A DNA stretch of 29,233 bases from a virus, in IMG/VR virus record IMGVR_UViG_3300030055_000029, positions 1 to 29,233 of that record, one strand, 5' to 3'. The notes under the pieces are model-generated. The model was not told the DNA's origin. It did not search any database and was given only the letters and a program-made list of their open reading frames with translations. Positions 5,429 through 19,844 of the stretch are shown here, piece by piece. The translations under genes and the position numbers were made by a program. Position 1 is the stretch's first letter; every line of letters begins with the position of its first letter.

Positions 5429-5431
5429 AAA

Positions 5432-6343
5432 ATGAAACTACATGAATTGTTTGAAGATCAGAATGGTGATCAAGATTTAATCGACATCTTAAGAAAGCAC
5501 TGTCCCAATAACTTAAAAGCTATGGCTTCAGGAAGGGCCCCAATGTTGTGGAGGGGTATGAATTGGGATGCTAGTATTGAAACTCCTAAATACAAGTGTG
5601 ACACGGTTAGTACACAGAAAACAAAACGCGAATCGAAAACTGGATCAAATCTGATAATGAGTTTCTTTTCAACAAACAAAGACTGGGTTGAATCAACTGT
5701 TAATAGATCACTTTCTACTTCCACTTCCTGTTCGTACGATTACGCTTCACAGTTTTCTGGTCCAACATGGTTGGTTATTCCATTTGATAATGTCAAACGT
5801 TTCAGTTATACATATACGGATTTAAATTTAGTTGATGTAAATGATACCTCGCTTATTGATTTGAATCACCAAATGAAGGATATTTCTAATGCAATAGAAG
5901 GTTTTCGTCATTGGAATTATGATAAGCTAGATAAAGATATTGCTAGAATAGCGCATGCTGATATTTTTGATTATGATATTGGGTCTCACCATTATTCAAC
6001 TGAAGAAATAAAAGAATTTTCAAATCAGCTTGAAAAAATATTTGTATTGTTAAAGAATACAAAGAAAAGAAAAACACTAGCAGTAACAGATGCAGCAACT
6101 TTCAAAGATATGGAAGAAGAAATGAATGACTCCTCCATGTATCGTTGGATGTTAAATGAACTCTCTCCATCTGCATTAGGTATAAAGACATTTAATTCTA
6201 TAACTCAAATTCCTAATCATGTTAAAAAAGCTGAAGTATGGTTTGATGGGGATTATTTTATTTTTAGCCCAGTAGCATCTCAGTTAACAGCATCACAACC
6301 TTTTAATATAGAATGGTTCAAAGAAATAATTGCAAAGGTATAA
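5432..6343 (+). CDS. Putative virion-packaged ADP-ribosyltransferase, copy 2
   Basis: This 303-residue paralogue of the 4511 gene starts three bases after its stop. The leader is again MKLHELFE but the next residue is D, a weaker gp21-type site. ART-like landmarks are R41 in MLWRG, STS at 95-97, the block FSGPTWLVIPFDN at 108-120, and E268 in AEVWFDGDY. RES at 66-68 aligns with PRES of copy 1. Residues 150-245 are poorly conserved between copies and may set the target. The residue two before the Glu is Lys, so no ExE. Family membership rests on short motifs and is moderately sure. Confidence 0.58.
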   Translation: MKLHELFEDQNGDQDLIDILRKHCPNNLKAMASGRAPMLWRGMNWDASIETPKYKCDTVSTQKTKRESKTGSNLIMSFFSTNKDWVESTVNRSLSTSTSCSYDYASQFSGPTWLVIPFDNVKRFSYTYTDLNLVDVNDTSLIDLNHQMKDISNAIEGFRHWNYDKLDKDIARIAHADIFDYDIGSHHYSTEEIKEFSNQLEKIFVLLKNTKKRKTLAVTDAATFKDMEEEMNDSSMYRWMLNELSPSALGIKTFNSITQIPNHVKKAEVWFDGDYFIFSPVASQLTASQPFNIEWFKEIIAKV

Positions 6344-6344
6344 T

Positions 6345-7277
6345 ATGAAGTTGTTTGAACTATTTGAACAGAAGAATGATTTAGCATCAGCAATAAAACA
6401 ACACAGTCCCGATAATTTTAGAGCATTGATATCAGGCAGTGCACCAGCATTATATCGCGGAGTACATAGTAGAGTATTAGAAGAAGGAAATTTCAACTAC
6501 GATATAGTTAAAGAAAGAACTCAACCCAGAGAATCAATGACAAGATCAAATTTATTTTTAGATTTTACATCTGAAAGTAAAAGTTGGAAATCATTGGGGG
6601 TTGACAGAGCATTTTCTACATTCGTTACGGTGAATGTAGAAAATGCTGAAATATTTGGTGATCCATTTTTAATCATTCCATTTGACAATGTTTCAACTTT
6701 TGCATCAACACGTGCAGATTTCAATTTAGTAACATTTGGTAAAAATAAAAATTCTATATCACAGATTTCTAGAACAATAGGATTTGTTTGTACTACGGTT
6801 ATTCAGTTTGGGCAAAAATCAGGTTTCTTCAATAAGGTTTTACCAAAGGATTTTATCAACGTTATTAAAAATGGATTTATAACAAAATTTAGGAACATTA
6901 AACATTTTACACAGGATGACATTAAAAAATTATCTGATTCACTTGGTGCACTTAAATCACTGCCATTTGATTTAGAGATTGAAAAGTTAAAATCTAGTGG
7001 ATCACAAGAGTTAGCCATTATTCATTTAGAAGATCTTCAGAGCCAATTATTTACTTTAGATAAGATGCTATCAGGTAAATCGTTAAATGATTGGTTACAA
7101 TTTAACATGTCACCTAAAGCTGTAGGCGTAAAAGTTTTTGAACATTATCAGGATATTATCGTTTCAAAAAATGCTGAACTTTGGTTTAGAGGACAGTATA
7201 TAATGATAAATCATGAATCAATTAAAATTGAAAAGTTATATTCTTCTAAAGAATTTGAAAATCTGATGCAAGTTTAA
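6345..7277 (+). CDS. Putative virion-packaged ADP-ribosyltransferase, copy 3
   Basis: The start is ATG 6345, preceded by AAAGG; a TTG at 6330 would add five residues in front of the conserved leader and is rejected. The protein has 310 residues and begins MKLFELFEQ, the same leader with Q after LFE. Landmarks: R38 in ALYRG, PRES at 61-64, STF at 91-93 (the third Ser of the other copies is Phe), FGDPFLIIPFDN after it, and E278 in AELWFRGQY. It is the most diverged copy. The three genes look like an amplified and diversified effector family. Confidence 0.57.
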   Translation: MKLFELFEQKNDLASAIKQHSPDNFRALISGSAPALYRGVHSRVLEEGNFNYDIVKERTQPRESMTRSNLFLDFTSESKSWKSLGVDRAFSTFVTVNVENAEIFGDPFLIIPFDNVSTFASTRADFNLVTFGKNKNSISQISRTIGFVCTTVIQFGQKSGFFNKVLPKDFINVIKNGFITKFRNIKHFTQDDIKKLSDSLGALKSLPFDLEIEKLKSSGSQELAIIHLEDLQSQLFTLDKMLSGKSLNDWLQFNMSPKAVGVKVFEHYQDIIVSKNAELWFRGQYIMINHESIKIEKLYSSKEFENLMQV

Positions 7278-7328: not shown

Positions 7329-8072
7329 ATGCTTGGTTTATCTCTAAGAACACACAATGTTCGAAATCTCTTTATTTCCATCCTTGAACAAAAACTCTTT
7401 ACTTCTGTAAATCGAGAAGGGTCAATGACTGACCTGGTTGGTAATACAACAATCGAAATTGTTAATGCATCGTTCATTGCAGATGAACCTTCAATCTTCG
7501 GTGAAGTCAATTTAGATTATGTCAGACGTGAAGAAGAATGGTATAATTCAATGTCACTTAACGTGAATGATATTCCAGGTGGAGCTCCAGCAGTCTGGAA
7601 AGCAGTGGCTGATGAAAATGGTTTTATCAATTCCAATTACGGTTGGGCTATCTATTCTCCAGATAATGGTTTTGATGAACTACCTCTCAACGAGAATAAT
7701 GAATTAAACTCTCAGTACGGTTCCGTAGTAAAAGAACTCCGTAAAAATCCTGAATCACGTCGAGCAATGATGATCTACACTCGACCTTCAATGTGGTTAG
7801 ATTACAACAAGAATGGTCGTTCTGACTTCATGTGTACGAATGCAGTCCAATATCTGATACGTGGTGGCAAAATCCATTCAATAGTTCAGATGCGCAGCAA
7901 TGATGCAGTGTTCGGTTACAAAAATGATTGGGCATGGCAAAAACACGTACTTGACAAATTAGCAAATGATTTAAGTATTCCATCTGGGAATATTTTCTGG
8001 AATGTTGGAAGTCTTCATGTATATTCAAGACATTACCACCTTGTTGATCCAATTAACTACAGTAGGAAATAA
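7329..8072 (+). CDS. 42: Deoxycytidylate 5-hydroxymethylase (T4 gp42 homologue)
   Basis: The enzyme makes 5-hydroxymethyl-dCMP from dCMP and methylene-tetrahydrofolate. The 247 residues match T4 gp42 (246) in length and in many blocks: ASFIADEPSIFG at 47-58, NSNYGWAIYS at 101-110, FMCTNAVQYLIR at 167-178, RSND at 189-192 and WNVGSLHVYSRH at 224-235. Cys169 is the catalytic nucleophile position. Asp200, eleven residues after the Arg of RSND, sits where thymidylate synthase has Asn177; Asp there is the known mark of the dCMP enzyme. The C terminus is a little shorter than in T4. It implies the phage replaces cytosine with hydroxymethylcytosine, and agrees with the BGT-like gene at 12255. Confidence 0.93.
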   Translation: MLGLSLRTHNVRNLFISILEQKLFTSVNREGSMTDLVGNTTIEIVNASFIADEPSIFGEVNLDYVRREEEWYNSMSLNVNDIPGGAPAVWKAVADENGFINSNYGWAIYSPDNGFDELPLNENNELNSQYGSVVKELRKNPESRRAMMIYTRPSMWLDYNKNGRSDFMCTNAVQYLIRGGKIHSIVQMRSNDAVFGYKNDWAWQKHVLDKLANDLSIPSGNIFWNVGSLHVYSRHYHLVDPINYSRK

Positions 8073-8074
8073 AA

Positions 8075-8317
8075 ATGTGTGATTGTGGAACTTGCAACGA
8101 CATCAAACGTTGGAAAGATGTCATTAAGAATGGTACCGTAGACGAACGTTTTGAAGTGTTCAATGAAATGTTTGGTCGCATTGAACTAGCAGAAACTGAT
8201 CTTCTGTATTATCAATCCATTTTAAATGGATCATGGCCAAATGCTCAAAGCATTTTAGAAAGAAAATTGGCATTCATAAAGGAGAAAAATGCACAGAATC
8301 TACCTCTCACGGACTAA
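8075..8317 (+). CDS. Small unknown protein with N-terminal Cys pair
   Basis: An 80-residue protein beginning two bases after the gene 42 stop, likely in the same transcript. It starts MCDCGTCNDIKRWK: three cysteines in the first seven residues, possibly metal binding, followed by a mostly helical, charged stretch. I do not recognise the family. The next gene begins inside its 3' end. Confidence 0.65.
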   Translation: MCDCGTCNDIKRWKDVIKNGTVDERFEVFNEMFGRIELAETDLLYYQSILNGSWPNAQSILERKLAFIKEKNAQNLPLTD

Positions 8318-8483
8318 TCTCCTTGCTCTCCTTGCTAAGTTGGATAGTCAGAATGGTGAATTTGAACCAAATGCGACATCAATTATCAAGCATGATAAAC
8401 AGGATCCAAGATTTGATCAGACACTTCCGATAGTTTGTGTTACTGCTATCGAAGATGAAATTTATTACGGTAAAAAATCATGA
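8289..8483 (+). CDS. Small unknown protein, first copy of a duplicated pair
   Basis: A 64-residue protein starting inside the upstream gene in another frame, with AAGGAGAAAA just before the ATG. It matches the product of the following reading frame (8480-8731): TNLLALLAKLD aligns with NLLTLLSKLD, and VCVTAIEDEIYY with VVTAIDDEEYY. So it is one of two tandem duplicates of an unrecognised short acidic domain. Its stop overlaps the next ATG (ATGA at 8480-8483). Another frame through 8233-8433 is treated as a shadow. Confidence 0.65.
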   Translation: MHRIYLSRTNLLALLAKLDSQNGEFEPNATSIIKHDKQDPRFDQTLPIVCVTAIEDEIYYGKKS

Positions 8484-8731
8484 TAACTGCACCTCAACAC
8501 GTCTATTTATCTCGGTGAAATCTCTTAACCTTGCTTTCAAAACTTGATAGGCACGCAAGTGGTGAAGATACATTGTGCACCATTATTAAATACGATGATA
8601 CACATGCAAAGTATCCTCAGTCGTGCCCAGCAATTGTTGTCACCGCTATTGACGATGAAGAATATTATTCTACACGATCATCAGGTATGGCAGGTGATGT
8701 TCACCCTTTAGATGATCCTGACACAAAATGA
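8480..8731 (+). pseudogene. Second copy of the duplicated small gene, interrupted by in-frame TGA
   Basis: Starting at ATG 8480, which overlaps the previous stop, the frame reads MITAPQHVYLSR, then TGA at 8516-8518, then NLLTLLSKLD and on to 8731. The first copy reads IYLSRTNLLALLAKLD, so homology continues across the stop, which replaces a Thr codon. The rest of the frame is intact, so the mutation may be recent, or a product of up to 66 residues may be made from the TTG at 8531, or TGA may be read through. The end overlaps the next ATG. Alternatives to a pseudogene cannot be excluded. Confidence 0.6.
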
Positions 8732-8886
8732 ACCAACCAGACCCAAAACTCCACAAACTCATAAGTCTCTGTAAAAGTGCATTACGCATTTTAGCAGGGG
8801 CGGCATTACTGTCTCAAAGTTTTTATGCTTCTGGGTTACTGTTTATAATAGCAGAAATACTAGGTATCATTGAGGAATTAGTATGA
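8728..8886 (+). CDS. Small hydrophobic, probably membrane, protein
   Basis: A 52-residue protein read from the ATG at 8728, which overlaps the preceding stop; its own TGA overlaps the next ATG at 8883. The N-terminal 18 residues are polar and basic (MNQPDPKLHKLISLCK). Residues 19-48 are hydrophobic, with GAALLSQSFYASGLLFIIAE in the middle, enough for one or two short membrane helices. Gap-free overlaps on both sides support a real gene. The function is unknown; small phage membrane proteins often act on the host envelope, but nothing here shows it. Confidence 0.6.
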   Translation: MNQPDPKLHKLISLCKSALRILAGAALLSQSFYASGLLFIIAEILGIIEELV

Positions 8887-9101
8887 GTGAACAATTCAAT
8901 TATGTGATAGCAGCTCCTTGGCCAAAAGGGGTGGGTGGTCTATGCACATTTAGTTCTTTCGGTGAAGTTCATTTCGGTGATTCAGATGATGCTCAAAATT
9001 CACTCGACTATGCAATACAACAAATCGAGAAAGATGTTGAACGTTATGATCATCAGCCTAAAGCACAAGATTTTAAAATTTACAAAGTAGTATCGATTTA
9101 A
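8883..9101 (+). CDS. Small unknown protein
   Basis: A 72-residue soluble-looking protein in the chain of overlapping genes. Its TAA shares its last base with the helicase ATG at 9101. A hydrophobic and aromatic first half (NYVIAAPWPKGVGGLCTFSS) is followed by a helical, acidic second half. Not recognised. Coupling to the helicase gene suggests matched expression. Confidence 0.65.
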   Translation: MSEQFNYVIAAPWPKGVGGLCTFSSFGEVHFGDSDDAQNSLDYAIQQIEKDVERYDHQPKAQDFKIYKVVSI

Positions 9102-10840
9102 TGAAATATCAAAAAGAAATTTTCCTAGCATTTGAACGGCTAGGGTTTAATCCACGAAAAGGACAAGCAGAAGCAGTCAACAAGGTTCTTGAAGCCTTCT
9201 TGGATGAGAACATGAAGAACGTTGTAATGTCTGCCCCAACTGGTACTGGTAAAAGTATCATTGGGGCAGCGACAGCAGAAGCATTGTCTATTGTTAGAGG
9301 TGTTGAACATAATGCTCCCAAGTCAAGCATCATGTTATGTTCAACAAATACTCTATCGAAACAGTATGATGAAACCTTTTCTGAACTAGCTAAGCACAAC
9401 AAGTACATAATGATCAAGGGTGCAAATAATTATCCTTGTTCAGCACTTTCTCAGAATGGTGAAGAAGAAAATGCAGAAAGCTGTGCTTGGTATTCAATGG
9501 TCAAATCATCTGAATTTGCTGACACGATTTGCAATCATTGCGATAGGTGTGAATTCCTTAATGTCAAGAAACGAAAAAACACTATTCGACATCTAACAAC
9601 AAACTATTCATATTTCTTTGTTGATAGGATGTACACTGGAAAGTTTGAAGAACGCGATTTGGTTGTATGGGATGAAGCTCACTTGATCAACGATTTGTTC
9701 AGTGAACACAATGCGATTTACTTCTCTCAAAAGAGAATGTTGGCAATTGCTAAAGAGCTTTCTGAAACACTTTCATTAGTCGAAACAGATATTGCGAAAA
9801 CAGTAATGGCAATCGCAAATGACTGCACCAAAAAAGACAAAATTAATGAAACAAACTATCGTGCATATCTATTAGGATTGCAGAAGGTTTACGAGTATGC
9901 AAAGACTAGAGGTGAAGCTGAAGCTGAAAAAGCATTGAGAGCTAACTCAATGAAACGATATACTAGCATGAACAAGTTTGTGCGAAAGTATGAAGGTTTG
10001 AGCTGTAAAATTTCTGATTTCTTTACATATGAATACGATCATGTATTTGAAAATAAAGAAGATGAAGAATCCTGTAGCGTAAAGCCAGTGTTTGTTGGAG
10101 CTATGATGGAAACCCTTCAATGTTCTAATCACAATCTGTTTATGTCTGCTACTATTTCTAAAAACTTTCTAGAACGTACGCTTCAGTTAGTACCAGATAA
10201 AACCAAATTTATCAAATTGGAACCAACATTTCCTAGAGAAAATAAAGAGGTAGTGTTCTTTGATCCACTATCATTGAATTTTACTTCTCTAAAAAATCCA
10301 GATACTGTGAAAGCACTGAGGAAAAATGTTTTCAAAATTGTAAATAAGCATGTCAATGAAGGTGATAGAGGTATCATTTTGACACCATCATTCAAGCTTC
10401 AAAATGAGTTGGTTGATGAGATTAAATCATTAGCTACATCTGGTAAAATGAAGCTATTTGAACATGTTCAAGGAACCAAACTTGAAATAACACTAGCATC
10501 CTTTAAGTCCTATACTGGTGATTTACCAGCAGTTCTTATTTCTCCATCCATATTTGAAGGTATCGACTTACCTGGTAAGTTATCCAAATTTCAAATTTTA
10601 GTTAAGGCTCCCTTCCCATCTTTGGGTGACAAACGTATGAAGTATATTCTGGATAGATACCCAGATATCTATCAACAGATTATGATTATGAAAGCAGTTC
10701 AAGGCGCAGGCCGATCTGTTCGATCTGAAACTGATAGTGCTGTCACTTATTGCACAGATCAAAATTTGTCAAGAGCATGGGGATCAAATGCTAACATTTG
10801 GCAAGATGAATTCAATACACGGTTTACGCGTTTTATTTAA
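9101..10840 (+). CDS. DinG/XPD-like superfamily 2 DNA helicase with probable Fe-S cluster
   Basis: The 579-residue protein has Walker A APTGTGKS at 45-52, a DEAH box at 191-194 (VVWDEAH), MSATIS as motif III, and motif VI QGAGRSVRSETD from 534. Between motifs I and II lie C113, C128, C144, C147 and C150, the place and approximate pattern of the 4Fe-4S domain of XPD and DinG helicases. Those enzymes unwind DNA 5' to 3'. The late-part block SPSIFEGIDLPG also matches that family. It differs from the T4 helicases gp41, Dda and UvsW. It sits among DNA precursor and modification genes, so a role in replication or repair is likely. The family is confident; the exact role is not. Confidence 0.85.
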   Translation: MKYQKEIFLAFERLGFNPRKGQAEAVNKVLEAFLDENMKNVVMSAPTGTGKSIIGAATAEALSIVRGVEHNAPKSSIMLCSTNTLSKQYDETFSELAKHNKYIMIKGANNYPCSALSQNGEEENAESCAWYSMVKSSEFADTICNHCDRCEFLNVKKRKNTIRHLTTNYSYFFVDRMYTGKFEERDLVVWDEAHLINDLFSEHNAIYFSQKRMLAIAKELSETLSLVETDIAKTVMAIANDCTKKDKINETNYRAYLLGLQKVYEYAKTRGEAEAEKALRANSMKRYTSMNKFVRKYEGLSCKISDFFTYEYDHVFENKEDEESCSVKPVFVGAMMETLQCSNHNLFMSATISKNFLERTLQLVPDKTKFIKLEPTFPRENKEVVFFDPLSLNFTSLKNPDTVKALRKNVFKIVNKHVNEGDRGIILTPSFKLQNELVDEIKSLATSGKMKLFEHVQGTKLEITLASFKSYTGDLPAVLISPSIFEGIDLPGKLSKFQILVKAPFPSLGDKRMKYILDRYPDIYQQIMIMKAVQGAGRSVRSETDSAVTYCTDQNLSRAWGSNANIWQDEFNTRFTRFI

Positions 10841-10851
10841 TAGGAGAGATT

Positions 10852-11172
10852 ATGAAAAAGAGTTTGATTAGTTTGGCAATGTTTATGTTTTGTGGTGCTG
10901 CATTTTCTGTGCAGTGGATGCCCATTGTCACTTTGGATGATGGAACAAAAGTATCAATTGATGTTACGAGCGTGACAAAACCCGCGGCTCGCCAACGTCA
11001 AGGAACGATTCGTTGGGATTCAACAGGTGATTCATCTACCATCGTTGTCAACTGTACCAATCACACTTTTCATGTACCACCTGAACAATGGACAAAGATT
11101 CATTATCCATCTATTGCTGGTGGATTTGAAAACACAACCTGTGGTGTTCCAGATAGTAAGTTTGGATACTGA
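10852..11172 (+). CDS. Exported small protein with signal peptide
   Basis: The 106-residue product begins MKKSLISLAMFMFCGAAFS, a typical Sec signal peptide with a likely cut after residue 19. C68 and C97 could form one disulphide in the periplasm. The spacing of conserved-looking features (opening VQWMPI, a VSIDVTSV strand, CTNHTF, late Cys) loosely recalls the surface-adhesin E domain found in short exported bacterial proteins, but this is weak. AGGAG precedes the start. A periplasmic phage protein expressed with replication genes could alter envelope physiology or block superinfection; neither is shown. Confidence 0.75.
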   Translation: MKKSLISLAMFMFCGAAFSVQWMPIVTLDDGTKVSIDVTSVTKPAARQRQGTIRWDSTGDSSTIVVNCTNHTFHVPPEQWTKIHYPSIAGGFENTTCGVPDSKFGY

Positions 11173-11201
11173 TTCCAGATTTCTTTTATACGTGTATGAC
11201 A

Positions 11202-11207
11202 TATAAT
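11202..11207 (+). promoter_or_regulatory. Possible -10 box
   Basis: TATAAT lies in the 55-base gap between the exported protein and the next gene, 21 bases before its ATG. There is no convincing -35 and no TG just upstream. It could reinforce expression of the dNMP kinase and glycosyltransferase genes. Confidence 0.3.
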
Positions 11208-11227
11208 AATTTTTTAGGAGAATAATA

Positions 11228-11680
11228 ATGCAAAAATTGAAATATAAACCATCAAAGGGACAGTATCGTCTTTATCTAACCAATGTTGAAGCTGAACTAC
11301 TTGCTTTTTTACTACAACACGTTCGTCTCGGTAAAGGCGATGAATACAAAGAAGCAGCCCTGGACCTATGTCAAGCATTTCGTGAAACAGATGAATTTGA
11401 ATTCTCTGAGCTAGAGCATTACATGTCATTGAGCGTGAGTGATACTGAAAGTGAAGGACCAGGAATTACGGTAAGTGAACTACATCAGAATGAAAATGAT
11501 CACGGCGATACATGTTGTGGTAAATGTTCAGGTGCTTGCAGTGATCAACATATCAGTATCTCAACACCAGGTGATATTGAGTTTGTTACTGGATCACTTT
11601 TGACATCATCAGATATCATTGAAGAGATTAGGCGTCGCAAGCGTTTGTTGGAAGAAACTTCACGTCAACAGAATCTATGA
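11228..11680 (+). CDS. Unknown protein with CCxxCxxxC cluster
   Basis: This 150-residue protein starts after a good AGGAG. Its first 65 residues look helical and globular. C96, C97, C100 and C104 with H92 and H108 on either side could bind zinc. The C terminus is a basic helix (IRRRKRLLEE). Its stop overlaps the dNMP kinase start. No family recognised. Confidence 0.7.
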   Translation: MQKLKYKPSKGQYRLYLTNVEAELLAFLLQHVRLGKGDEYKEAALDLCQAFRETDEFEFSELEHYMSLSVSDTESEGPGITVSELHQNENDHGDTCCGKCSGACSDQHISISTPGDIEFVTGSLLTSSDIIEEIRRRKRLLEETSRQQNL

Positions 11681-12258
11681 TTACAAATTTTTTAATTGAG
11701 GGACTAGATAGATTAGGAAAGGATACCCTTATCGATGGATTATTAAATCGATATGGGTATGCTGAAGTCCATCATCGTAAGAAACCATTATCGCTTTCCT
11801 TTTACAACAATTTTGCTACTCCAAATCGTTCAGGTTTACAGCTTTATCAATCTTCGTGTTTCAAACATGACATGCAATTATTGAAAGTTTCTGAATTATG
11901 TGGTATTAAAAATATCTTCAATCGTGCATGGTTGGGTGAAGCTGTTTATTCAAATCTCTACCGAGGATATGACGGCAATTACGTCTTTGAATTGGAAAAT
12001 GAATGTGATCTTCACAAATTACAATCAACTCGACTGATTCTTTTAATTGAAGATTTTAATACTTCCAAACACTTTGTTGATGATGGTGACTCATTTGACA
12101 TTTCTAAACGTGTTGAGGAACAGGACATGTTCGTTAGAGCGTTTGATAAATCATTGATCAAAGATAAACGAATTGTATGTGTCACTGATTTTAGGACCGG
12201 TCAATTCAAAAGCAAAGAACAAATACTTGAAGAAGTAACAATGGAGATTACCACTTGA
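11677..12258 (+). CDS. Deoxynucleoside monophosphate kinase (thymidylate-kinase-like)
   Basis: A 193-residue P-loop kinase: IEGLDRLGKDT at 7-17 is the Walker A of the thymidylate kinase family (EGxDxxGKxT), and NRAWLGEAVYSNLYRGY at 82-98 resembles the DR..GE..Y...YRG segment of phage kinases of this fold. It is most likely a dNMP kinase. In an hmC phage one is needed to phosphorylate 5-hydroxymethyl-dCMP, which the host kinase does not do well; in T4 this is gp1. Position just before the BGT-like gene fits. The stop overlaps the next start codon (TTGA). Confidence 0.75.
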   Translation: MITNFLIEGLDRLGKDTLIDGLLNRYGYAEVHHRKKPLSLSFYNNFATPNRSGLQLYQSSCFKHDMQLLKVSELCGIKNIFNRAWLGEAVYSNLYRGYDGNYVFELENECDLHKLQSTRLILLIEDFNTSKHFVDDGDSFDISKRVEEQDMFVRAFDKSLIKDKRIVCVTDFRTGQFKSKEQILEEVTMEITT

Positions 12259-13469
12259 AAGTAGCAGTAATTAAATTGGGGTCCCGCATTTCTTTTAATG
12301 CCAATGATACATCCGGGGCAAACGGTGAAGCTCGAAGTATCTGTAAAATGTTGAAGCTTGGTGGAGCCGAAGTTCATATTTACACAAAAATATTGAAGAA
12401 AGATAATCTTATCGAAGATTATCATTGGCATTCTTTAAACACTGTAGAAGCATCTAAAGTAAGTGATATTGAAGAACGTATTTTTGTTGATAAATATTCA
12501 AGCACTTATATTGAACACCGTAAAATTCAATTAGTTGGTGACCTATCTAATATGGATGCATTGGTTGTACTAAATGGAACAGTTCAATTTTATGGTGGTG
12601 AGGAAGATCCAGAACAATTGTTGAATTATTTTATCATCAACAACTTCAAGGGTAAAGTGTTCTACATTTACTGTGATCCAGAACTTACATTGAAGCAGGT
12701 ATGGCCTTCAGTTTCAAAGAAGCCTTGGGCTAGTAACTGGTCACAATCTGATCTTGAGATAACCCGTACAGATATCGTTTATTTAAGTCAACCACATAAT
12801 GTTAACCACATTTTAGATGACCTTAAAAAGAACGAAGTTATTCCTCGAGAAATTATTCACTACCCTTTTGAACAGTTTCCGTGTTTGAATGAACAACTCC
12901 CATTCAATCCATCTCCTGAAGTTGATCTATCTTATGGTGGAACAATGCGTGGTGGTAAACGTGAAAAGAAGATGGCAAGATTTTACTTTGGACATACTTC
13001 AGAACTTTCTGTTGAAATGTTCGGTAAGATTAAAGAGGAAGATTTCAACCCTAAAAATATCTTCGGTTTAACAACACCAACATTTTCTGGTCCAGTCAAG
13101 TACGATGACATGCTTCCTAAAATGAATAAGTCGATGGCACATTGTGTTATCGGTGATCCATATTATGAAAAGATTGAAGATATGGCACAACGTTGCTATG
13201 AATCTATCTGGTCAAATGTTGTGACTTTCATTGACAGTGACATGGATAAGTTACGACGAGTGTATGGTAAAGATAGAGTTTTGTCTGATTTTCTTTATGT
13301 CACAGATCGTCAAGAGCTAGCAGAAAAGATTCTTCTACTCAAGGAAGATAATGATCTAAGAAAACAAATTCTTCAAGATCAACTAAAGGCGGTGAACTTC
13401 AATCCTGAAAAATACTGTACAGATTTTGTTAACCTTATTAAACTTTTTGCATCACTAAAATATGATTAA
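12255..13469 (+). CDS. Beta-glucosyltransferase-like DNA hydroxymethylcytosine glycosyltransferase
   Basis: The 404-residue protein aligns along its length with T4 BGT (351). MKVAVIKLG matches MKIAIINMG, fixing the start at an unusual TTG with GGAG eight bases upstream. Later matches are VVLNGTVQFYGG at 104-115, VWPSVSKKPWA at 149-159, YPFEQF at 203-208 and YGGTMRGGKREKKM at 227-240. Equivalents of the T4 active site are visible: E25, D141 (catalytic Asp), R232 and R236 (UDP binding), D301 and E316. It should transfer a sugar from a UDP-sugar to hmC in DNA. Extra residues near 45-95 and the sugar-nucleotide genes downstream leave the sugar open: glucose or something else. Confidence 0.88.
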   Translation: MKVAVIKLGSRISFNANDTSGANGEARSICKMLKLGGAEVHIYTKILKKDNLIEDYHWHSLNTVEASKVSDIEERIFVDKYSSTYIEHRKIQLVGDLSNMDALVVLNGTVQFYGGEEDPEQLLNYFIINNFKGKVFYIYCDPELTLKQVWPSVSKKPWASNWSQSDLEITRTDIVYLSQPHNVNHILDDLKKNEVIPREIIHYPFEQFPCLNEQLPFNPSPEVDLSYGGTMRGGKREKKMARFYFGHTSELSVEMFGKIKEEDFNPKNIFGLTTPTFSGPVKYDDMLPKMNKSMAHCVIGDPYYEKIEDMAQRCYESIWSNVVTFIDSDMDKLRRVYGKDRVLSDFLYVTDRQELAEKILLLKEDNDLRKQILQDQLKAVNFNPEKYCTDFVNLIKLFASLKYD

Positions 13470-13875
13470 ACTTACAATTGGTACTAGAGTTCAAACCTCA
13501 TTCACTCCTATTGACATGTATGAACTTGTTGTCACAGGTATGAGCGGTGATGGTGATCACTATGAAAAAACTTCTGATTATGGTGATCAAGAACAGATAG
13601 CTGAATGGATTAATATTCTTAATGCCGTCTCTGGTTTAGGATGGAATGCACGATGTTGTGATGATGACGCGGTTTTTGCTGCTATTTCAAAGCGTGCTGA
13701 AGAATTGGAAACTGACCCCGAAGAAGCGGTAGATTGGTATTCTGATATGGTTGGTAGTGATATCACCTCAAATGACGGATTACATGCAATGTTTACTGGT
13801 GCAGAAGTATTCTGGTATGATCCAGATGGTGAAAAATTTAATGTGAACGTTGAAGGGTTAATCACCCCCGCCTGA
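13462..13875 (+). CDS. Unknown acidic protein
   Basis: A 137-residue acidic protein whose start lies inside the last codons of the glycosyltransferase gene, so it is probably translationally coupled. An N-terminal beta-rich part (LTIGTRVQTSF) is followed by a helical middle. DDDAVF near 68-73 and DPDGEKF near 124-130 are Asp-rich, but no clear EF-hand is seen. Function unknown; its place between the glycosyltransferase and the sugar genes may be informative. Confidence 0.7.
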   Translation: MIKLTIGTRVQTSFTPIDMYELVVTGMSGDGDHYEKTSDYGDQEQIAEWINILNAVSGLGWNARCCDDDAVFAAISKRAEELETDPEEAVDWYSDMVGSDITSNDGLHAMFTGAEVFWYDPDGEKFNVNVEGLITPA

Positions 13876-13929
13876 TTGAATTTCCCGTAAATACAACGTG
13901 CCCGGATTTCGGGAGATAAGGAGAAAAAT

Positions 13930-15789
13930 ATGAAGATAGTTATTTGTTCAGGTGGTACAGGTTCAATTGCATTACAAACAGGATTGTACAAAACGTTCCA
14001 AGATATTGATGGGGTCGATATCAAAATTTTGATTAATGCATATGACAATGGTAAGTCAACGGGTGATGTTAGACGGGTTGCTGGAGGTAAAATTCTTGGA
14101 CCTTCAGATATGCGCAAAAATCAAACCACGCGTTTATCTTTAGAAAATATCAAGTCACCATGGTTAAGCTATCTTGATATTCGTTTTACTGAAGAGTCAA
14201 CTAAAGCTAAACAGTACTGCGAAGAACAGACTGACATTCTTAGAAGTCAAATTACTGATGACATTTCAGAAGTGTATGAAGCTATTGACATTTATTTCAA
14301 GAAACATTCTGCAGAAAAAATTAACTATACGGATTTTGCTCTAGCTAATATCGTTTATGCAGGCTTATCTATTAAGCACAATAATTCACTTCGTATGGCA
14401 GGAAGTGTCATGGCTAGATTGATGGGAATTAGTGACAACGTTATTCTCAATGACGACACATCATTGTTTTTAGGAGCAATCTCTAAGTCAGGTGAACACG
14501 TTTCTGATGAAGGTGATATTGTTGCTTGGGGTAAAAAAGATGACCCATTTGTGAATGTCTATTTTACTGATACTGAAGGATATAGTTTCAAACCAATTTT
14601 GTGTGATGAAGCACGAGATGCTTTGATTGATGCTGATCTAATTATTCTTTCTTCTGGAACATTTTGGGCTTCATTGATGCCTACTTATGTCAGTATTGGT
14701 TTTAAAGAAGCCATGGCACAGACAAAGGCAAAGGTGCTAATGGTTATGAATCGTTTCCCTGATACAGATAGTCCAGGTCAAACGGGTACGGAAATTATCA
14801 ATGCACTGGTGCCAAGCATCTTTAAAGAAAAGCAGATTACGATTGTTGCAGACTCGTCTGGTTCTCCACAGATGAATGCATTTGAGAAAGATATTTTTAA
14901 TCTCATTGATAGGTTGTATGTTGACAATTTAATGATGACTGGAGAAACTTCGCCATCTGACATGAAGAAACATAATCCTATTAAGCTAGCACGACTTGTT
15001 GGTGTTGCTTATTTCGGTGATGCTTTAACATCATCTCATTTTATGTTTGATTATGATGACACGTTAGTTGGTAGAGGTAATAAATTGCCTAAATCATCTA
15101 GAGTCAATATTGTTGAACTTAACAGATTGAATTCAAAATTAAAGAACAGTTTATCAATATGCACTGGGAACAGTATCAAGGCAATCGATTTAAATATTGG
15201 TGAATGGCATGTTGATCTTATTAGAAGTATAAATATTTTTGCAGATGGTGGAGTAAATAATTACACTTATCTAGAAGATACATCAAGCACCGATGACAAT
15301 AATAGAAAGATAACATTTAATGGATGTGTAAACGATTCATACATTATTCCAGAAGAAGTTATTAATCAATTGGTTTGGCGTTTAAGAGATGCTGGAATTC
15401 AATTCTACAAAATTGAAATCCGCGGCGGTGTTATGATTTCTATTAAGCCTATTGAACAGGAATATAGAAAACCAATTCTGACATTAGTCAAGATGATCTT
15501 AGCAGAATTTGTGAACATCGAATTGGTAGCTAAATTATCTGGTAGGACCACTATTGAAATAGCTCATAAAGATATTTCAAAAGCTGATGCACTTAGAAGC
15601 ATTCTTCAACAACCCAATGTTACAAGTATCACATATGTGGGAGATGAATTGCTAAGTGGTAATGATTCACCCATCGCAATGTTAGCTCAACAGGATAGTA
15701 GAATTAAAACTCTAAATGTATCATCTCCTTCTCAGACAGCATTTTTCCTAAAAACGCTGTCACGTGGAAAGTCATCATACTCTTTATAA
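13930..15789 (+). CDS. YvcK/CofD-like domain fused to a HAD sugar-phosphate phosphatase or mutase-like domain
   Basis: In this 619-residue fusion, residues 1-365 look like the CofD/YvcK (UPF0052) family: SGGTGSIALQTGL at 7-19, NAYDNGKSTGDVRRV at 36-50, GKILGPSDMRKNQ at 53-65. YvcK proteins bind UDP-sugars and CofD transfers a phospho-lactyl group. Residues 366-619 form a HAD-IIB-like domain with all four motifs: DYDDTL 374-379, CTGNS 411-415, a Lys in the KDISKAD segment (547-553), and GDELLSGND 571-579, the last resembling the phosphomannomutase-type motif GDxxxxGGND. With the neighbouring sugar nucleotidyltransferase it probably makes or handles an activated sugar. The exact reaction is inference. 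A good GGAG precedes the start. Confidence 0.75.
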   Translation: MKIVICSGGTGSIALQTGLYKTFQDIDGVDIKILINAYDNGKSTGDVRRVAGGKILGPSDMRKNQTTRLSLENIKSPWLSYLDIRFTEESTKAKQYCEEQTDILRSQITDDISEVYEAIDIYFKKHSAEKINYTDFALANIVYAGLSIKHNNSLRMAGSVMARLMGISDNVILNDDTSLFLGAISKSGEHVSDEGDIVAWGKKDDPFVNVYFTDTEGYSFKPILCDEARDALIDADLIILSSGTFWASLMPTYVSIGFKEAMAQTKAKVLMVMNRFPDTDSPGQTGTEIINALVPSIFKEKQITIVADSSGSPQMNAFEKDIFNLIDRLYVDNLMMTGETSPSDMKKHNPIKLARLVGVAYFGDALTSSHFMFDYDDTLVGRGNKLPKSSRVNIVELNRLNSKLKNSLSICTGNSIKAIDLNIGEWHVDLIRSINIFADGGVNNYTYLEDTSSTDDNNRKITFNGCVNDSYIIPEEVINQLVWRLRDAGIQFYKIEIRGGVMISIKPIEQEYRKPILTLVKMILAEFVNIELVAKLSGRTTIEIAHKDISKADALRSILQQPNVTSITYVGDELLSGNDSPIAMLAQQDSRIKTLNVSSPSQTAFFLKTLSRGKSSYSL

Positions 15790-15801
15790 GGATAATCAAA
15801 A

Positions 15802-16584
15802 ATGGCAACTGATATAACAGCCGATCTTTACATTATTGCAGCAGGTAAAGGAACACGCATGGGTAATAAGTTGCCAAAAGCACTTATCCCATTCAATGGA
15901 GAACCATGTTTAACACACACACTTAAAAACATAGGACAACATTTCAGAAATGTTTTTGTTGTTATAAATGAAGATATTCAAGATGTGTGGGATAGATACA
16001 AGTCAGAAATTTCACTTAGTAGTCACCCATTCTCAATGAATGTTCAGTTTATTCCTATCAAATCTGGTTTGGGAGATGGACATGCTACCTTAATGGCTCT
16101 TGAAAAAGCGCCCGCTATAGCAACATTATCTCCAGAAATAGTAGTATGTTGGGGTGATGTTTATTTTCATCAACCAGAAATAATTACTGAACTTCTTAGC
16201 ATGAAGATGTCTTCTAATGGAATAGTTCCAGCTCTACTTGAACAAAATCCGTATGTTACTTTGTTGGTTGATGATACTCTAAACTGTATGTCAGCGGATT
16301 TCTCAAAATACGGTGAGCAACACCCAAGTGGTTTTCATGATCAATCAGTCTTCAGACTGAAGTATGATGTGACTGTTGCTGCTCTTTCAAGACTTCATAA
16401 AGCATTTTGGAAAAATGGAAGATATGCAACCCCTGGTGGCGAGCTTTCACTGTTGTATATTTTCCATTACTTGTACAATCTAGAATGCCCAGTAACAGTA
16501 TATGAAACTAGTCACTCGACAAAATCTTTTAACACTGACACAGAAGTCAAATTAATACGCGAGGAAATTTTAAATGACAAATAG
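15802..16584 (+). CDS. Sugar-1-phosphate nucleotidyltransferase-like protein
   Basis: A 260-residue GT-A type NTP transferase. IIAAGKGTRMGNKLPKAL at 11-28 is the nucleotide-binding signature (xxAGxGTRMxxxxPKxL), SGLGDGHATLMAL at 88-100 is the second nucleotide/sugar segment, and WGD at 117-119 supplies the metal-binding Asp. Such enzymes join a sugar-1-phosphate or similar alcohol phosphate to an NTP to give an NDP-sugar or NDP-polyol. It follows the CofD-like/HAD gene by 12 bases and overlaps the next gene, so the pair probably acts in one pathway, most simply to feed the BGT-like enzyme. The substrate cannot be read from the sequence. Confidence 0.8.
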   Translation: MATDITADLYIIAAGKGTRMGNKLPKALIPFNGEPCLTHTLKNIGQHFRNVFVVINEDIQDVWDRYKSEISLSSHPFSMNVQFIPIKSGLGDGHATLMALEKAPAIATLSPEIVVCWGDVYFHQPEIITELLSMKMSSNGIVPALLEQNPYVTLLVDDTLNCMSADFSKYGEQHPSGFHDQSVFRLKYDVTVAALSRLHKAFWKNGRYATPGGELSLLYIFHYLYNLECPVTVYETSHSTKSFNTDTEVKLIREEILNDK

Positions 16585-17236
16585 ACAACAGCCCATTCTA
16601 ATCACATTGACAGCCCCATCTTGTGGAGGTAAAAGTTATCTTCTTAACTACATACGTGACATTGCAAAAATGCCATGTTTGATCTCAACCACTACAAGAC
16701 CTCCTCGAGCAAATGAAGTTGAAGGAGTTGATTATTATTTCATCACCGAAGAACAGTCTATTCAGTTAGCAGTTATGGATCAATTTGCTGAATTAGCAAT
16801 CTATAACGGTGTTCGATATGGGGTGACACGTAAAGAACTTAAAGAAAAACTTTCATCTGGTTATGCATTCCTGATTATCGAACCAGGTGGTCTCGAAGGG
16901 TACGTTCAATCTGCTATTGATATGGGTGCGAAGCATCTTAAGTACTACATCCATACTGATCCAGAAACACGCATTGAAAGATTCTATGATCGCGTGAACA
17001 AAGACGTTACAAAATTATTCGGAAAAACTCTTGATCGTGAATATACGAAACTCGATTTAGAAAGTGATACTAAGGAAATAATTCATGCATCACTGACAAG
17101 GTTCAGAAATATGCTAACAACGGAAATGACATGGGGCAGTGATTACCAATGGGACAGAATACTATTTGGTACAACATTTCCAGAAGAAAATTTACAAATC
17201 ATTCAAAATGATATTAGGGAATTGATTAAAAGCTGA
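16574..17236 (+). CDS. gmk: Guanylate kinase
   Basis: A 220-residue protein with P-loop APSCGGKS at 14-21 (GPSGxGKS in the family) and STTTRPPRANEVEGVDYYF at 38-56, the near-invariant GMP-binding signature. Length is close to the usual 200-210. It converts (d)GMP to (d)GDP. The Cys in the P-loop is unusual. It overlaps the preceding gene by 11 bases after GAGGAAA. In this operon it would supply dGTP for phage DNA; a role in activating another nucleotide is less likely. Confidence 0.88.
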   Translation: MTNRQQPILITLTAPSCGGKSYLLNYIRDIAKMPCLISTTTRPPRANEVEGVDYYFITEEQSIQLAVMDQFAELAIYNGVRYGVTRKELKEKLSSGYAFLIIEPGGLEGYVQSAIDMGAKHLKYYIHTDPETRIERFYDRVNKDVTKLFGKTLDREYTKLDLESDTKEIIHASLTRFRNMLTTEMTWGSDYQWDRILFGTTFPEENLQIIQNDIRELIKS

Positions 17237-17284
17237 CAGTCTATTAAATAAATAAATCATCAAATAACACATAAAGGATAACAC

Positions 17285-17713
17285 ATGACAAATACTACTC
17301 CCTCTTTCTGGCCAGCTGATATTGAAGATATGCACACTAAATTCGGTGTGAATAAAGTTGTTGCTACTCTCGATAAAGAACAACTCAAAACATATTTGAA
17401 GTTTCGTCTTGACATGGTCCAAGAAGAAGTAACTGAAGCAATGAGTGCATTCGCATCTGGAGATGCAGATGGTGTCGTTGATGCTTTGATTGACAATATC
17501 GTTTTTGCTATTGGTACATTGGATGTTTTCGGAATTGATCCATATGCTGCTTGGAATGAAGTCCATTCAAAGAATATGGAAAAATCACCAGGTGTAAAAG
17601 CTGGTCGTCCAAATCCATACGGATTCCCTGACCTTATTAAGCCACCGTCATGGCAGGCGCCGGTTCATTTAGATAATCTAGGGTTGTTATCTAAAGTATT
17701 CCCACAGGAGTAA
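17285..17713 (+). CDS. MazG-like all-alpha NTP pyrophosphatase (possible dCTPase)
   Basis: The 142-residue protein shows the metal-binding pattern of the all-alpha NTP pyrophosphohydrolases: QEEVTEA at 46-52 (E47, E48, E51) and DALIDNIVFAIGTLDVFGID at 66-85 (D66, D70), followed by EVHSKNMEK. These enzymes cut NTP to NMP and pyrophosphate. A phage with hmC DNA must destroy dCTP, as T4 gp56 does, and gp56 belongs to this broad fold; I infer dCTP, possibly dUTP, as substrate. AAGGATAA precedes the start. Confidence 0.78.
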   Translation: MTNTTPSFWPADIEDMHTKFGVNKVVATLDKEQLKTYLKFRLDMVQEEVTEAMSAFASGDADGVVDALIDNIVFAIGTLDVFGIDPYAAWNEVHSKNMEKSPGVKAGRPNPYGFPDLIKPPSWQAPVHLDNLGLLSKVFPQE

Positions 17714-17876: not shown

Positions 17877-19844
17877 ATGAAACTACTAGCATTTGCAAAT
17901 GCACAACATGAACTGAAAGAAGCTTCAGTCAAATCTGAGAATGTCCATCTTGCAATGGACAAAATGATTAAATTCATTCAAAAGAAACTTGATGTGAAAT
18001 TATTAAAGGTACCAGGTGTAGAACATTTTAACAATTCCAGCGACCACGGTTATGGAGTACGTTACATTTTCTCTGGTTCAACAAAATGTTTAAGATTTAA
18101 TTGGGCATCTGATGGTCAAGCTGGAAAGTCAAATGAAATTGTGTCAGTTGATATTTTCAATGGAAAAACTTCACACCCAAATTTCAATGTACATTGTAAA
18201 GGAATTTCCTTTGTAAGAGCCCTGCCTGTTATTATTGACATAATTGGTTCACCTTCTTTAGGAAAAGTAACTGCTTTCCCTGTTAATCCAACTGAAGCAA
18301 TTTCAGAATCTTTTCTGATTGAAGTCGCACGTGATGCTTTTACTGCTGAACGTGCACTAACTGACTTCCTAAAAAGATTAGGAGCAGGTAACGCATTGAC
18401 GAGATCAGATTTTATCGGATCATATCACATTGTTAATGTTGGTATTTTCGATACCATCATGCGCGATTTCAAAGATTCTTTTAGTATCTCAGGCAAACGC
18501 GTATCAATAAAAGTAGGTTCAAATTTGGGTGATCTGAAAGAATCAATCCTTTCAAAGTCGGGATCTGTAATTGTAACCGCTGGTGGTACAGATGAAAATT
18601 ATTTGAAGACTCCTCAAGAAGATGAACTTGCTGAGGAAGAAGGAAGTGACCACGTTCCATATAGTGATGCATTAGAACATCTTGAAGGTCTAGTTACTGG
18701 TACTATCAAGGGAGCATTCAATGCTTTGTTTGTTGCTGGTAAAGGTGGATGTTTTTCAGGTGACACAAAGATCAACATTGTTGTGAATGATTTAGTTCAT
18801 ACTGTTACGTTTTTTGAAATTGAACAAAGGGTAAAACAGTCATATGGTTTAGCTAGCCTTTTGTTGAATGAGTTTTATAAGATGGATGACGTAAAAGTTG
18901 AGACTCCAACCGGTTATTTGGACGTTTTGAGCTTTGTTAAGAAATCTGGTACAAAAGCTGTTGTGACTTTTCAATCTGGAATAGTTCATGAATGTCTTTC
19001 CAACCATCTTTATATCAATACCTCCGGTCATGCTGTTGCTGTCTATAATTTATATCCTGGTTCTCCAATAAGAATGAGGGATGGTACGTTAGATTTTATT
19101 AAATCAGTTGCGTTGACTGATGAACCAATGTTAGCATTCGATTTATCTGTTAGCGGTATCGATAGCATTTATGTTACGACTGATGGTATTCAATCTCACA
19201 ACACTGGTAAAACAACCATTGTTGAAAAGGTTTTACATTCACATGGATTGACAGATGGAAACGGTTATTACAAAAATACTGGTTCAGCGTCCGCAATCGG
19301 GATTTATCAATCTCTTTACAAAAATAGAAACAGCATTATTCTATTCGATGATTGTGATGGAGCACTATCTGATACAGATGCACGCAATCTTATTAAAGCA
19401 GCAACTGACACAAAGAAGAATAGAAAAATCGTATGGAATAAAAGAACATCTGGTAGCTATGACCCAAATGACATGAATGCTGCTTTGTATGCTGAAGATC
19501 CAGATAGATTTCCTACACACTTTGAATTTACTGGTCGTGTTATTTTTATTTCTAACTTACCACTTTCAAAATTGGATCCAGATGGTGCTATTAGAACACG
19601 TGCCTTCGTGATTAACATCAACCCAACTGATGATGAAATGTACGAACACATGGAAAAAATTCTTCATAACATCCGTCTTGAAGAAGGTCTTTCTCTATCA
19701 AAAGACGAAAGAGAAAACGTGTTTAAGGTTGTCAAAACATCCAAGCGTAAGGGTGATGTATCAATTAGAAAATTGGTTAGAGCTTTAAATCTAGCAGCAA
19801 CACACGCACCAGGTTGGGAAAAACTTGTGGACCTGTACGCCTGA
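17877..19844 (+). CDS. AAA-type ATPase containing a mini-intein in its Walker A loop
   Basis: The precursor has 655 residues; removing the intein (292-442) gives a 504-residue ATPase. The extein joins AGKGG to TGKTT, a complete Walker A. Walker B is IILFDDCD around 487-494, followed by a VIFISNLP sensor-like strand and an IRTRAF arginine segment. The C-terminal part and motif order match the product of 27273-28241 (GEGGLGKT, IIIFDDCD, FISNLP, IRSRA), so the two are paralogues. The first 250 residues are specific to this copy; an LKE|A at residues 13-16 resembles a prohead protease site but may be chance. Function unknown: a phage P-loop motor or remodelling protein. The SD is weak. Confidence 0.8.
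   Translation: MKLLAFANAQHELKEASVKSENVHLAMDKMIKFIQKKLDVKLLKVPGVEHFNNSSDHGYGVRYIFSGSTKCLRFNWASDGQAGKSNEIVSVDIFNGKTSHPNFNVHCKGISFVRALPVIIDIIGSPSLGKVTAFPVNPTEAISESFLIEVARDAFTAERALTDFLKRLGAGNALTRSDFIGSYHIVNVGIFDTIMRDFKDSFSISGKRVSIKVGSNLGDLKESILSKSGSVIVTAGGTDENYLKTPQEDELAEEEGSDHVPYSDALEHLEGLVTGTIKGAFNALFVAGKGGCFSGDTKINIVVNDLVHTVTFFEIEQRVKQSYGLASLLLNEFYKMDDVKVETPTGYLDVLSFVKKSGTKAVVTFQSGIVHECLSNHLYINTSGHAVAVYNLYPGSPIRMRDGTLDFIKSVALTDEPMLAFDLSVSGIDSIYVTTDGIQSHNTGKTTIVEKVLHSHGLTDGNGYYKNTGSASAIGIYQSLYKNRNSIILFDDCDGALSDTDARNLIKAATDTKKNRKIVWNKRTSGSYDPNDMNAALYAEDPDRFPTHFEFTGRVIFISNLPLSKLDPDGAIRTRAFVININPTDDEMYEHMEKILHNIRLEEGLSLSKDERENVFKVVKTSKRKGDVSIRKLVRALNLAATHAPGWEKLVDLYA
18750..19202 (+). mobile_element. 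Mini-intein (151 residues, no homing endonuclease)
   Basis: The in-frame insert begins with Cys (CFSGDTKI, a typical block A) and ends SHN before a Thr. The C-terminal block F is visible (AFDLSVSG...TTDGIQSHN). Block B is atypical: in CLSNHLYIN the His is present but the usual Thr three residues earlier is Leu. At 151 residues there is no room for a LAGLIDADG or HNH endonuclease. The insertion splits the Walker A between G and T, a common choice of conserved site for inteins. Splicing should restore the ATPase using +1 Thr. Confidence 0.88.

What the first reader, a model, noticed from the sequence alone, without database searches (positions are those of the whole stretch)
7329..17713. Cytosine hypermodification locus that may make its own sugar donor
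Seen: gp42-like dCMP hydroxymethylase with the diagnostic Asp, dNMP kinase, MazG-like pyrophosphatase, BGT-like transferase with conserved active residues, then a CofD/YvcK-HAD fusion and a sugar nucleotidyltransferase. Known: T4 uses host UDP-glucose and needs no sugar-nucleotide genes. Inference: this phage may attach a different sugar, or a phosphorylated one, to hmC.
Basis: partly seen in the sequence, partly recalled or inferred. Interest (0 to 1): 0.82.

Follow-up and report, generated by a model that had tools for sequence, protein, structure and literature searches.

The report
Phage DNA-glycosylation locus with sugar-donor genes
A large phage carries the genes to replace cytosine with hydroxymethylcytosine and glycosylate it, next to a travelling three-domain cassette that looks like a sugar-nucleotide factory, so its DNA may carry a sugar that the phage helps to make itself; neither the sugar nor the chemistry has been shown.

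Summary
The genes are real. The window (an IMG/VR phage fragment) encodes a dCMP hydroxymethylase (58% identical to T4 gp42, with the Asp), a T4-type β-glucosyltransferase (BGT) with the T4 catalytic and UDP-binding residues, a GlmR/YvcK-like CofD domain fused to a HAD domain, and a GlmU-like sugar-1-phosphate nucleotidyltransferase (NTase). (1) The HAD domain is of phosphomannomutase/α-phosphoglucomutase type (profile E 5e-17), suggesting hexose-6-P → hexose-1-P → NDP-hexose → hydroxymethylcytosine. (2) CofD, HAD and NTase form one unit, in the same stretch in 37 of 38 loci, with several fusion arrangements. It shares a record with a DNA glycosyltransferase in 26 of 27 phages: BGT in 22, the unrelated TET-associated glycosyltransferase in 4. 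Bacterial homologues mostly sit near glycan glycosyltransferases. In two sister phages the glycosyltransferase was swapped while the cassette stayed. Phage-made donors for DNA glycosylation are known (RB69, Thanatos, SP-15); I found no description of this cassette in the papers I could search. Open: the sugar (plain glucose is possible, the BGT donor site being T4-like), the CofD reaction, and whether a phosphodiester decoration is made.

The parts
7329..8072 (+). dCMP hydroxymethylase (T4 gp42-like)
   Evidence: 58% identity to T4 gp42; C169 and D200 (T4 D179) conserved; PHROG 160 E 3e-48
11677..12258 (+). putative deoxynucleoside monophosphate kinase (assignment weak)
   Evidence: PHROG 761 E 1.7e-6; conserved place in relatives
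12255..13469 (+). BGT-type DNA glycosyltransferase
   Evidence: PHROG 7922 E 1.9e-51; T4 catalytic and UDP-binding residues conserved, loop at T4 14-21 different
13930..14955 (+). CofD domain of GlmR/YvcK type (residues about 1-342 of the fusion)
   Evidence: TIGR01826 E 6e-17; profile to 2PPV E 1e-27; model pLDDT 92.5, best PDB folds are YvcK, then CofD and FbiA; invariant D39 and N274 equal GlmR D40 and N198 (mapping by eye)
15013..15789 (+). HAD-IIB domain of phosphomannomutase/alpha-phosphoglucomutase type (residues about 362-619)
   Evidence: profile to PMM E 4.7e-17 and to alpha-PGM 4BND 2.8e-11; Foldseek PMM, PGM and trehalose-phosphatase; D374, D376, T412, K551, D572, D579 present
15802..16584 (+). 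GlmU-like sugar-1-phosphate nucleotidyltransferase
   Evidence: model pLDDT 95; Foldseek best GlmU, E 1e-16, TMq about 0.8; D119 and N244 match GlmU Mg ligands D105 and N227
16574..17236 (+). guanylate-kinase-like enzyme, overlaps the NTase gene
   Evidence: TIGR03263 E 3e-18, below its curated cut-off, PHROG 1815 1e-27; found in the nearer relatives and in LR756500 only
17285..17713 (+). MazG/PRA-PH-type nucleotide pyrophosphohydrolase (possible dCTPase)
   Evidence: PF01503 E 5e-10, PHROG 671 E 8e-21; no BLAST similarity to T4 gp56

Best explanation
This is a T4-like hydroxymethylcytosine glycosylation locus with a phage-borne sugar-nucleotide cassette. Inferred pathway: the HMase and the kinase make hm-dCTP, which replaces dCTP (MazG-type enzyme removing dCTP). 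The mutase-type HAD domain turns a hexose-6-phosphate into hexose-1-phosphate, the GlmU-like enzyme activates it to an NDP-sugar, and the BGT transfers the sugar to hmC in DNA. The GlmR-like CofD domain, fused to the HAD, binds a nucleotide or nucleotide sugar; it either performs a further nucleotidyl- or phosphosugar transfer on this route or regulates it. A gluco-like but possibly non-glucose or modified sugar is my best guess. Shown: the genes, residues, folds and conserved linkage. Inferred: every reaction and the identity of the sugar.
For: HMase Asp/Cys and BGT active site conserved. HAD is PMM/alpha-PGM-like by profile and fold. NTase has the GlmU fold with both Mg ligands. CofD-HAD and NTase lie in the same stretch in 37 of 38 independent loci (<95% identity), phage and bacterial, in most as adjacent genes. 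The domains are rearranged as CofD-HAD|NTase, CofD|HAD-NTase (L040), CofD|HAD|NTase (L067, L072) and a CofD-(short HAD piece)-NTase fusion (L071). Of 27 independent phage loci 22 have BGT and 4 have TAGT/PHROG 842 DNA glycosyltransferases, near the cassette in 3 (L019, L022, L023) and about 150 kb away in L021. Sister phages L018 (BGT + HMase) and L019 (TAGT) keep cassette and neighbours while the glycosyltransferase differs. Bacterial copies sit beside GT2/GT8 and, in L064, next to genes that look like nonulosonate synthesis (the latter from sequence starts). Precedents: SP-15 PMM + UTP-Glc-1-P uridylyltransferase (PMC5977210), Thanatos TH1_063 UDP-xylose pyrophosphorylase (PMC12838424), RB69 UDP-arabinose module (PMC6024577); GlmR itself makes UDP-GlcNAc (PMC10128056).
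Against: No biochemistry. A mutase plus an NTase would suffice to make an NDP-sugar, so the obligatory CofD domain is unexplained. T4-type phages glycosylate hmC without such genes. One BGT record of this lineage (L038, 154 kb fragment) shows no cassette. The HAD could be a phosphatase rather than a mutase. One PMM substrate Arg (the one in IGR of PMM2) appears missing in my by-eye reading, and three bacterial copies (L064-L066) have altered motif-IV residues.
Confidence: 0.5

Rival explanations
1. CofC/CofD logic: the NTase activates a phospho-compound or sugar-1-phosphate, the CofD domain transfers the phosphorylated group from the nucleotide to a hydroxyl of the DNA-linked sugar (or of hmC), giving a phosphodiester decoration, and the HAD trims a phosphate. 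DNA would carry a phosphoglycosyl-type hypermodification.
For: CofD family includes F420 phospholactate transferases (folds 3C3D, FbiA match). NTase and CofD are inseparable, as CofC and CofD are in F420 synthesis (analogy from knowledge). Phosphodiester-linked glucuronolactone exists on SP-15 DNA (PMC5977210).
Against: The CofD domain is nearer to GlmR/YvcK than to CofD, and GlmR is reported as a uridyltransferase (PMC10128056). The NTase is nearest to GlmU, not CofC. The HAD is of sugar-phosphomutase type.
Confidence: 0.2
2. The cassette merely boosts ordinary UDP-glucose (glucose-6-P to glucose-1-P to UDP-Glc) and the DNA carries T4-like glucosyl-hmC; the CofD domain senses UDP-sugar, as YvcK does.
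For: HAD resembles alpha-phosphoglucomutase 4BND. The BGT active-site residues E22, E163, D258 are the same as in T4. YvcK binds UDP-Glc (PMC5482804).
Against: At the base-recognition Gln76 of GlmU the NTase has Ile86. The BGT loop at T4 14-21 differs, though also in L038, which lacks the cassette. The cassette persists beside unrelated glycosyltransferases.
Confidence: 0.2
3. The CofD-HAD/NTase cassette serves another glycan (cell surface, protein or phage structural glycosylation) and is beside BGT by chance or as part of a general takeover region.
For: Several bacterial homologues lie in apparent surface-glycan clusters. Megaphage LR756500 has other apparent sugar genes nearby.
Against: 26 of 27 phage loci have a DNA glycosyltransferase in the same record, of two unrelated families; gene order conserved.
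Confidence: 0.1

Closest known systems
T4 hmC glycosylation (gp42, gp1, gp56, BGT)
   Same: gp42-like dCMP hydroxymethylase with the Asp, BGT with the T4 catalytic residues, kinase- and pyrophosphatase-type genes
   Different: No alpha-glucosyltransferase in the records searched; own sugar-nucleotide cassette; MazG-type enzyme not related to gp56 by BLAST
Bacillus phage SP-15 DHPU cluster (PMC5977210)
   Same: Phage genes annotated as phosphomannomutase and UTP-glucose-1-phosphate uridylyltransferase next to glycosyltransferases for DNA
   Different: Modified uracil instead of hmC, and no CofD-HAD fusion among the genes listed in that paper; UDP-Glc dehydrogenase there
RB69 arabinosyl-hmC module (PMC6024577) and Shewanella phage Thanatos (PMC12838424)
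   Same: Cytosine glycosylation with phage-encoded genes proposed to make the donor; Thanatos TH1_063 shown to make UDP-xylose
   Different: Different transferases and donor enzymes; pentoses; no CofD/PMM-type HAD in the passages read
GlmR/YvcK (PMC10128056, PMC5482804) and CofD/FbiA
   Same: Fold and part of the nucleotide-site residues
   Different: Fused to a PMM-like HAD and tied to an NTase; function untested
TAGT (TET-associated glycosyltransferase) phages
   Same: The same cassette occurs in such phages (L019, L021, L022, L023)
   Different: No TET, no HMase and no BGT found in those partial records (the TET search had no positive control); different glycosyltransferase family

Membership tests
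T4-type hydroxymethylcytosine biosynthesis | TS-fold HMase with Asp at the TS Asn177 position and catalytic Cys | tested here: met
   D200 and C169, aligned to T4 gp42, 58% identity
T4-type hydroxymethylcytosine biosynthesis | hm-dCMP kinase | tested here: inconclusive
   weak PHROG match only, E 1.7e-6
T4-type hydroxymethylcytosine biosynthesis | dCTPase (gp56-like) | tested here: inconclusive
   MazG/PRA-PH present but not gp56-like by BLAST
GT63 beta-glucosyltransferase (BGT) | T4 D100, E163, R191, R195, D258, R269, E272 | tested here: met
   all identical in the window protein
GT63 beta-glucosyltransferase (BGT) | UDP-glucose as donor | not testable with these tools
   needs an enzyme assay; loop 14-21 differs from T4
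GlmR/YvcK | CofD fold nearest YvcK; GlmR catalytic residues D40, D41, N198 | tested here: inconclusive
   fold met; D39 and N274 invariant over 31 sequences, D41 is N40 in most (correspondence set by eye)
CofC/CofD F420 pair | CofD-proper (not YvcK-type) transferase together with a CofC-type NTase, by nearest relatives | tested here: not met
   NTase nearest GlmU, CofD domain nearest YvcK
CofC/CofD F420 pair | transfer of a phospholactyl-type group from the nucleotide to an acceptor hydroxyl | not testable with these tools
   needs assay
Eukaryotic-type phosphomannomutase / alpha-PGM (HAD-IIB) | HAD motifs and PMM-like profile over core and cap | tested here: met
   profile E 4.7e-17; motifs D374, D376, T412, K551, D572, D579
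Eukaryotic-type phosphomannomutase / alpha-PGM (HAD-IIB) | mutase rather than phosphatase activity | not testable with these tools
   needs assay
GlmU-type sugar-1-P NTase | GlmU fold, G-x-G-T-R-M...K motif, Mg ligands D105 and N227 | tested here: met
GlmU-type sugar-1-P NTase | UTP recognition by Gln76 | tested here: not met
   Ile86 in the window protein, so the nucleotide is unknown; it works like a sugar-1-P NTase but is not filed as GlmU

The most novel reading that the evidence does not exclude
The GlmR-like CofD domain is an active phosphosugar or phospho-group transferase, so that these phages carry a phosphodiester-linked (sugar-phosphate) hypermodified cytosine made by a CofD-HAD-NTase cassette which bacteria also use to decorate glycans.
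Probability: 0.15. Interest if true: 0.85.

Novelty: new variant of a known kind. Interest (0 to 1): 0.62.

Why it matters
If right, a mobile sugar-donor cassette plugs into unrelated phage DNA glycosyltransferases (BGT, TAGT) and into bacterial glycan loci, so new DNA sugars and new enzymes for glycosylating DNA could be found by following it. It also gives the GlmR/CofD superfamily, whose activity is little understood, a pathway context in which it can be tested.

Tried and rejected
Megablast of the locus in the phage collection: no match. T4-like phages with BGT do not show the cassette: 120 phage records have BGT, 5 have a CofD relative, 1 of them full-length. TET dioxygenase in TAGT phages: none found, but the control rang nowhere, so this is not evidence of absence. 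C5-methyltransferase: only in the L021 phage. Alpha-glucosyltransferase: not found in 7 BGT records, T4 control rang. BFVD viral fold search: no full-length CofD-HAD match, only a HAD of an Acinetobacter phage. An Acaryochloris plasmid CofD is standalone with no annotated glycan genes near it. NTase nucleotide specificity could not be read from residues. The idea that the HAD is a generic Cof phosphatase was replaced by PMM-type after the profile search.

Full report
What is there. The window is a 29,233-base virus record; a longer IMG/VR contig (81.6 kb) has the same genes, nearly all at 100% protein identity, over the stretch compared. All genes in the finding are intact. The HMase is 58% identical to T4 gp42 and keeps the Cys and the Asp that mark dCMP as substrate. 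The BGT keeps T4 E22, D100, E163, R191, R195, D258, Y261, R269 and E272; the loop at T4 14-21 is different. The kinase assignment is weak, and the MazG-type enzyme is not gp56-like.

The sugar cassette. The 619-residue protein has a CofD domain nearest to GlmR/YvcK and a C-terminal HAD-IIB domain. A profile of 26 HAD domains finds phosphomannomutases first (E 4.7e-17) and alpha-phosphoglucomutase (2.8e-11); Foldseek of a confident model (pLDDT 92.5) agrees, with trehalose-phosphatase also high. The next gene is a GlmU-fold NTase (pLDDT 95, TM about 0.8) with both Mg ligands, but without the uracil-recognising Gln of GlmU.

Linkage. In the relatives fetched, CofD (with or without a fused HAD) and NTase lie in the same stretch in 37 of 38 loci differing by more than 5%, in most of them as neighbouring genes (several genes lie between them in LR756500/L020; two in L072); the exception, L074, is a distant relative. 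The domains are split and joined differently in L040, L067, L071 and L072, as expected of one functional unit. Of 27 phage loci 22 have BGT and four have a TAGT-type DNA glycosyltransferase: near the cassette in L019, L022 and L023, 150 kb away in L021. L027 has only a weak glycosyltransferase-like neighbour. The phages with TAGT had no HMase or BGT in the parts held. In the tree, L018 (BGT) and L019 (TAGT) are sisters with full support and share the neighbouring genes, so the glycosyltransferase was exchanged while the cassette stayed. Several bacterial copies lie with GT2 and GT8 glycosyltransferases and, in L064, next to NeuB-like and CMP-sugar-like genes, a reading from sequence starts only.

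Mechanism. The simplest reading is hexose-6-P to hexose-1-P (HAD), to NDP-hexose (NTase), to glycosylated hmC (BGT). Each reaction is inferred from family. The CofD domain's role is open: GlmR is reported to be a uridyltransferase (PMC10128056) and to bind UDP-sugars (PMC5482804); CofD proper transfers a phospholactyl group (established knowledge). This leaves the donor route (0.5), a phosphodiester decoration (0.2), a plain UDP-glucose booster (0.2) and an unrelated glycan (0.1).

Known or new. Phage-made donors for DNA glycosylation exist or are proposed: SP-15 (PMC5977210), RB69 (PMC6024577) and Thanatos (PMC12838424). Among the papers listed in a search for CofD with phage, glycosyltransferase and DNA modification, none mentions CofD, and phosphomannomutase with hydroxymethylcytosine and phage occurs in one paper, on SP-15. 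Only open-licence papers were searchable, and one key survey of phage base modification was not held, so priority is not certain. I file it as a new variant of a known kind.

Limits. All relatives are metagenomic fragments or MAGs except T4, E. coli and the plasmid record; LR756500 is also metagenomic. Residue correspondences for GlmR and PMM were made by eye. Counts depend on what the pattern-based scans returned, and the loci were found through CofD, BGT or NTase queries, so the co-occurrence counts are not a random sample of phages.

Noticed in passing
17877-19844: A mini-intein of about 150 residues sits in the P-loop of an AAA+ ATPase (GKGG|CFSG...QSHN|TGKTT); relatives L006 and L007 have the uninterrupted GKGGTGKT. 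A NUMOD3/GIY-type gene follows at 19902.
   Followed up: partly
4511-7277: Three tandem paralogous genes of about 300 aa with no Pfam match. By eye they have R-G, S-T-S and E-x-W-F motifs that recall ADP-ribosyltransferases (host takeover?); untested.
   Followed up: no
16574-17236: Guanylate-kinase-like gene overlapping the NTase, with GMP-site residues conserved in relatives; present with the nearer BGT phages and LR756500 only. Might supply GTP or dGTP, or hint at a guanine nucleotide donor.
   Followed up: partly
L071:6305-8557 and L040:3924-6288: Natural fusions: CofD plus a short HAD piece plus NTase in a Desulfobacteraceae MAG, and HAD fused to NTase with CofD separate in a phage.
   Followed up: yes
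L008:3715-6346: Megaphage LR756500 has, about 8-10 kb from its BGT, what looks from sequence like a sialyltransferase-like gene and a DegT-like sugar aminotransferase (by eye only).
   Followed up: no
8233-8731: Two short similar ORFs (8289 and 8531 starts) look like a tandem duplication of a small unknown protein; two copies match in L002.
   Followed up: no
L038:10001-11113: A BGT of this lineage in a 154-kb fragment without a detectable CofD-HAD, yet with the same BGT loop, so the loop is not a marker of the cassette.
   Followed up: partly
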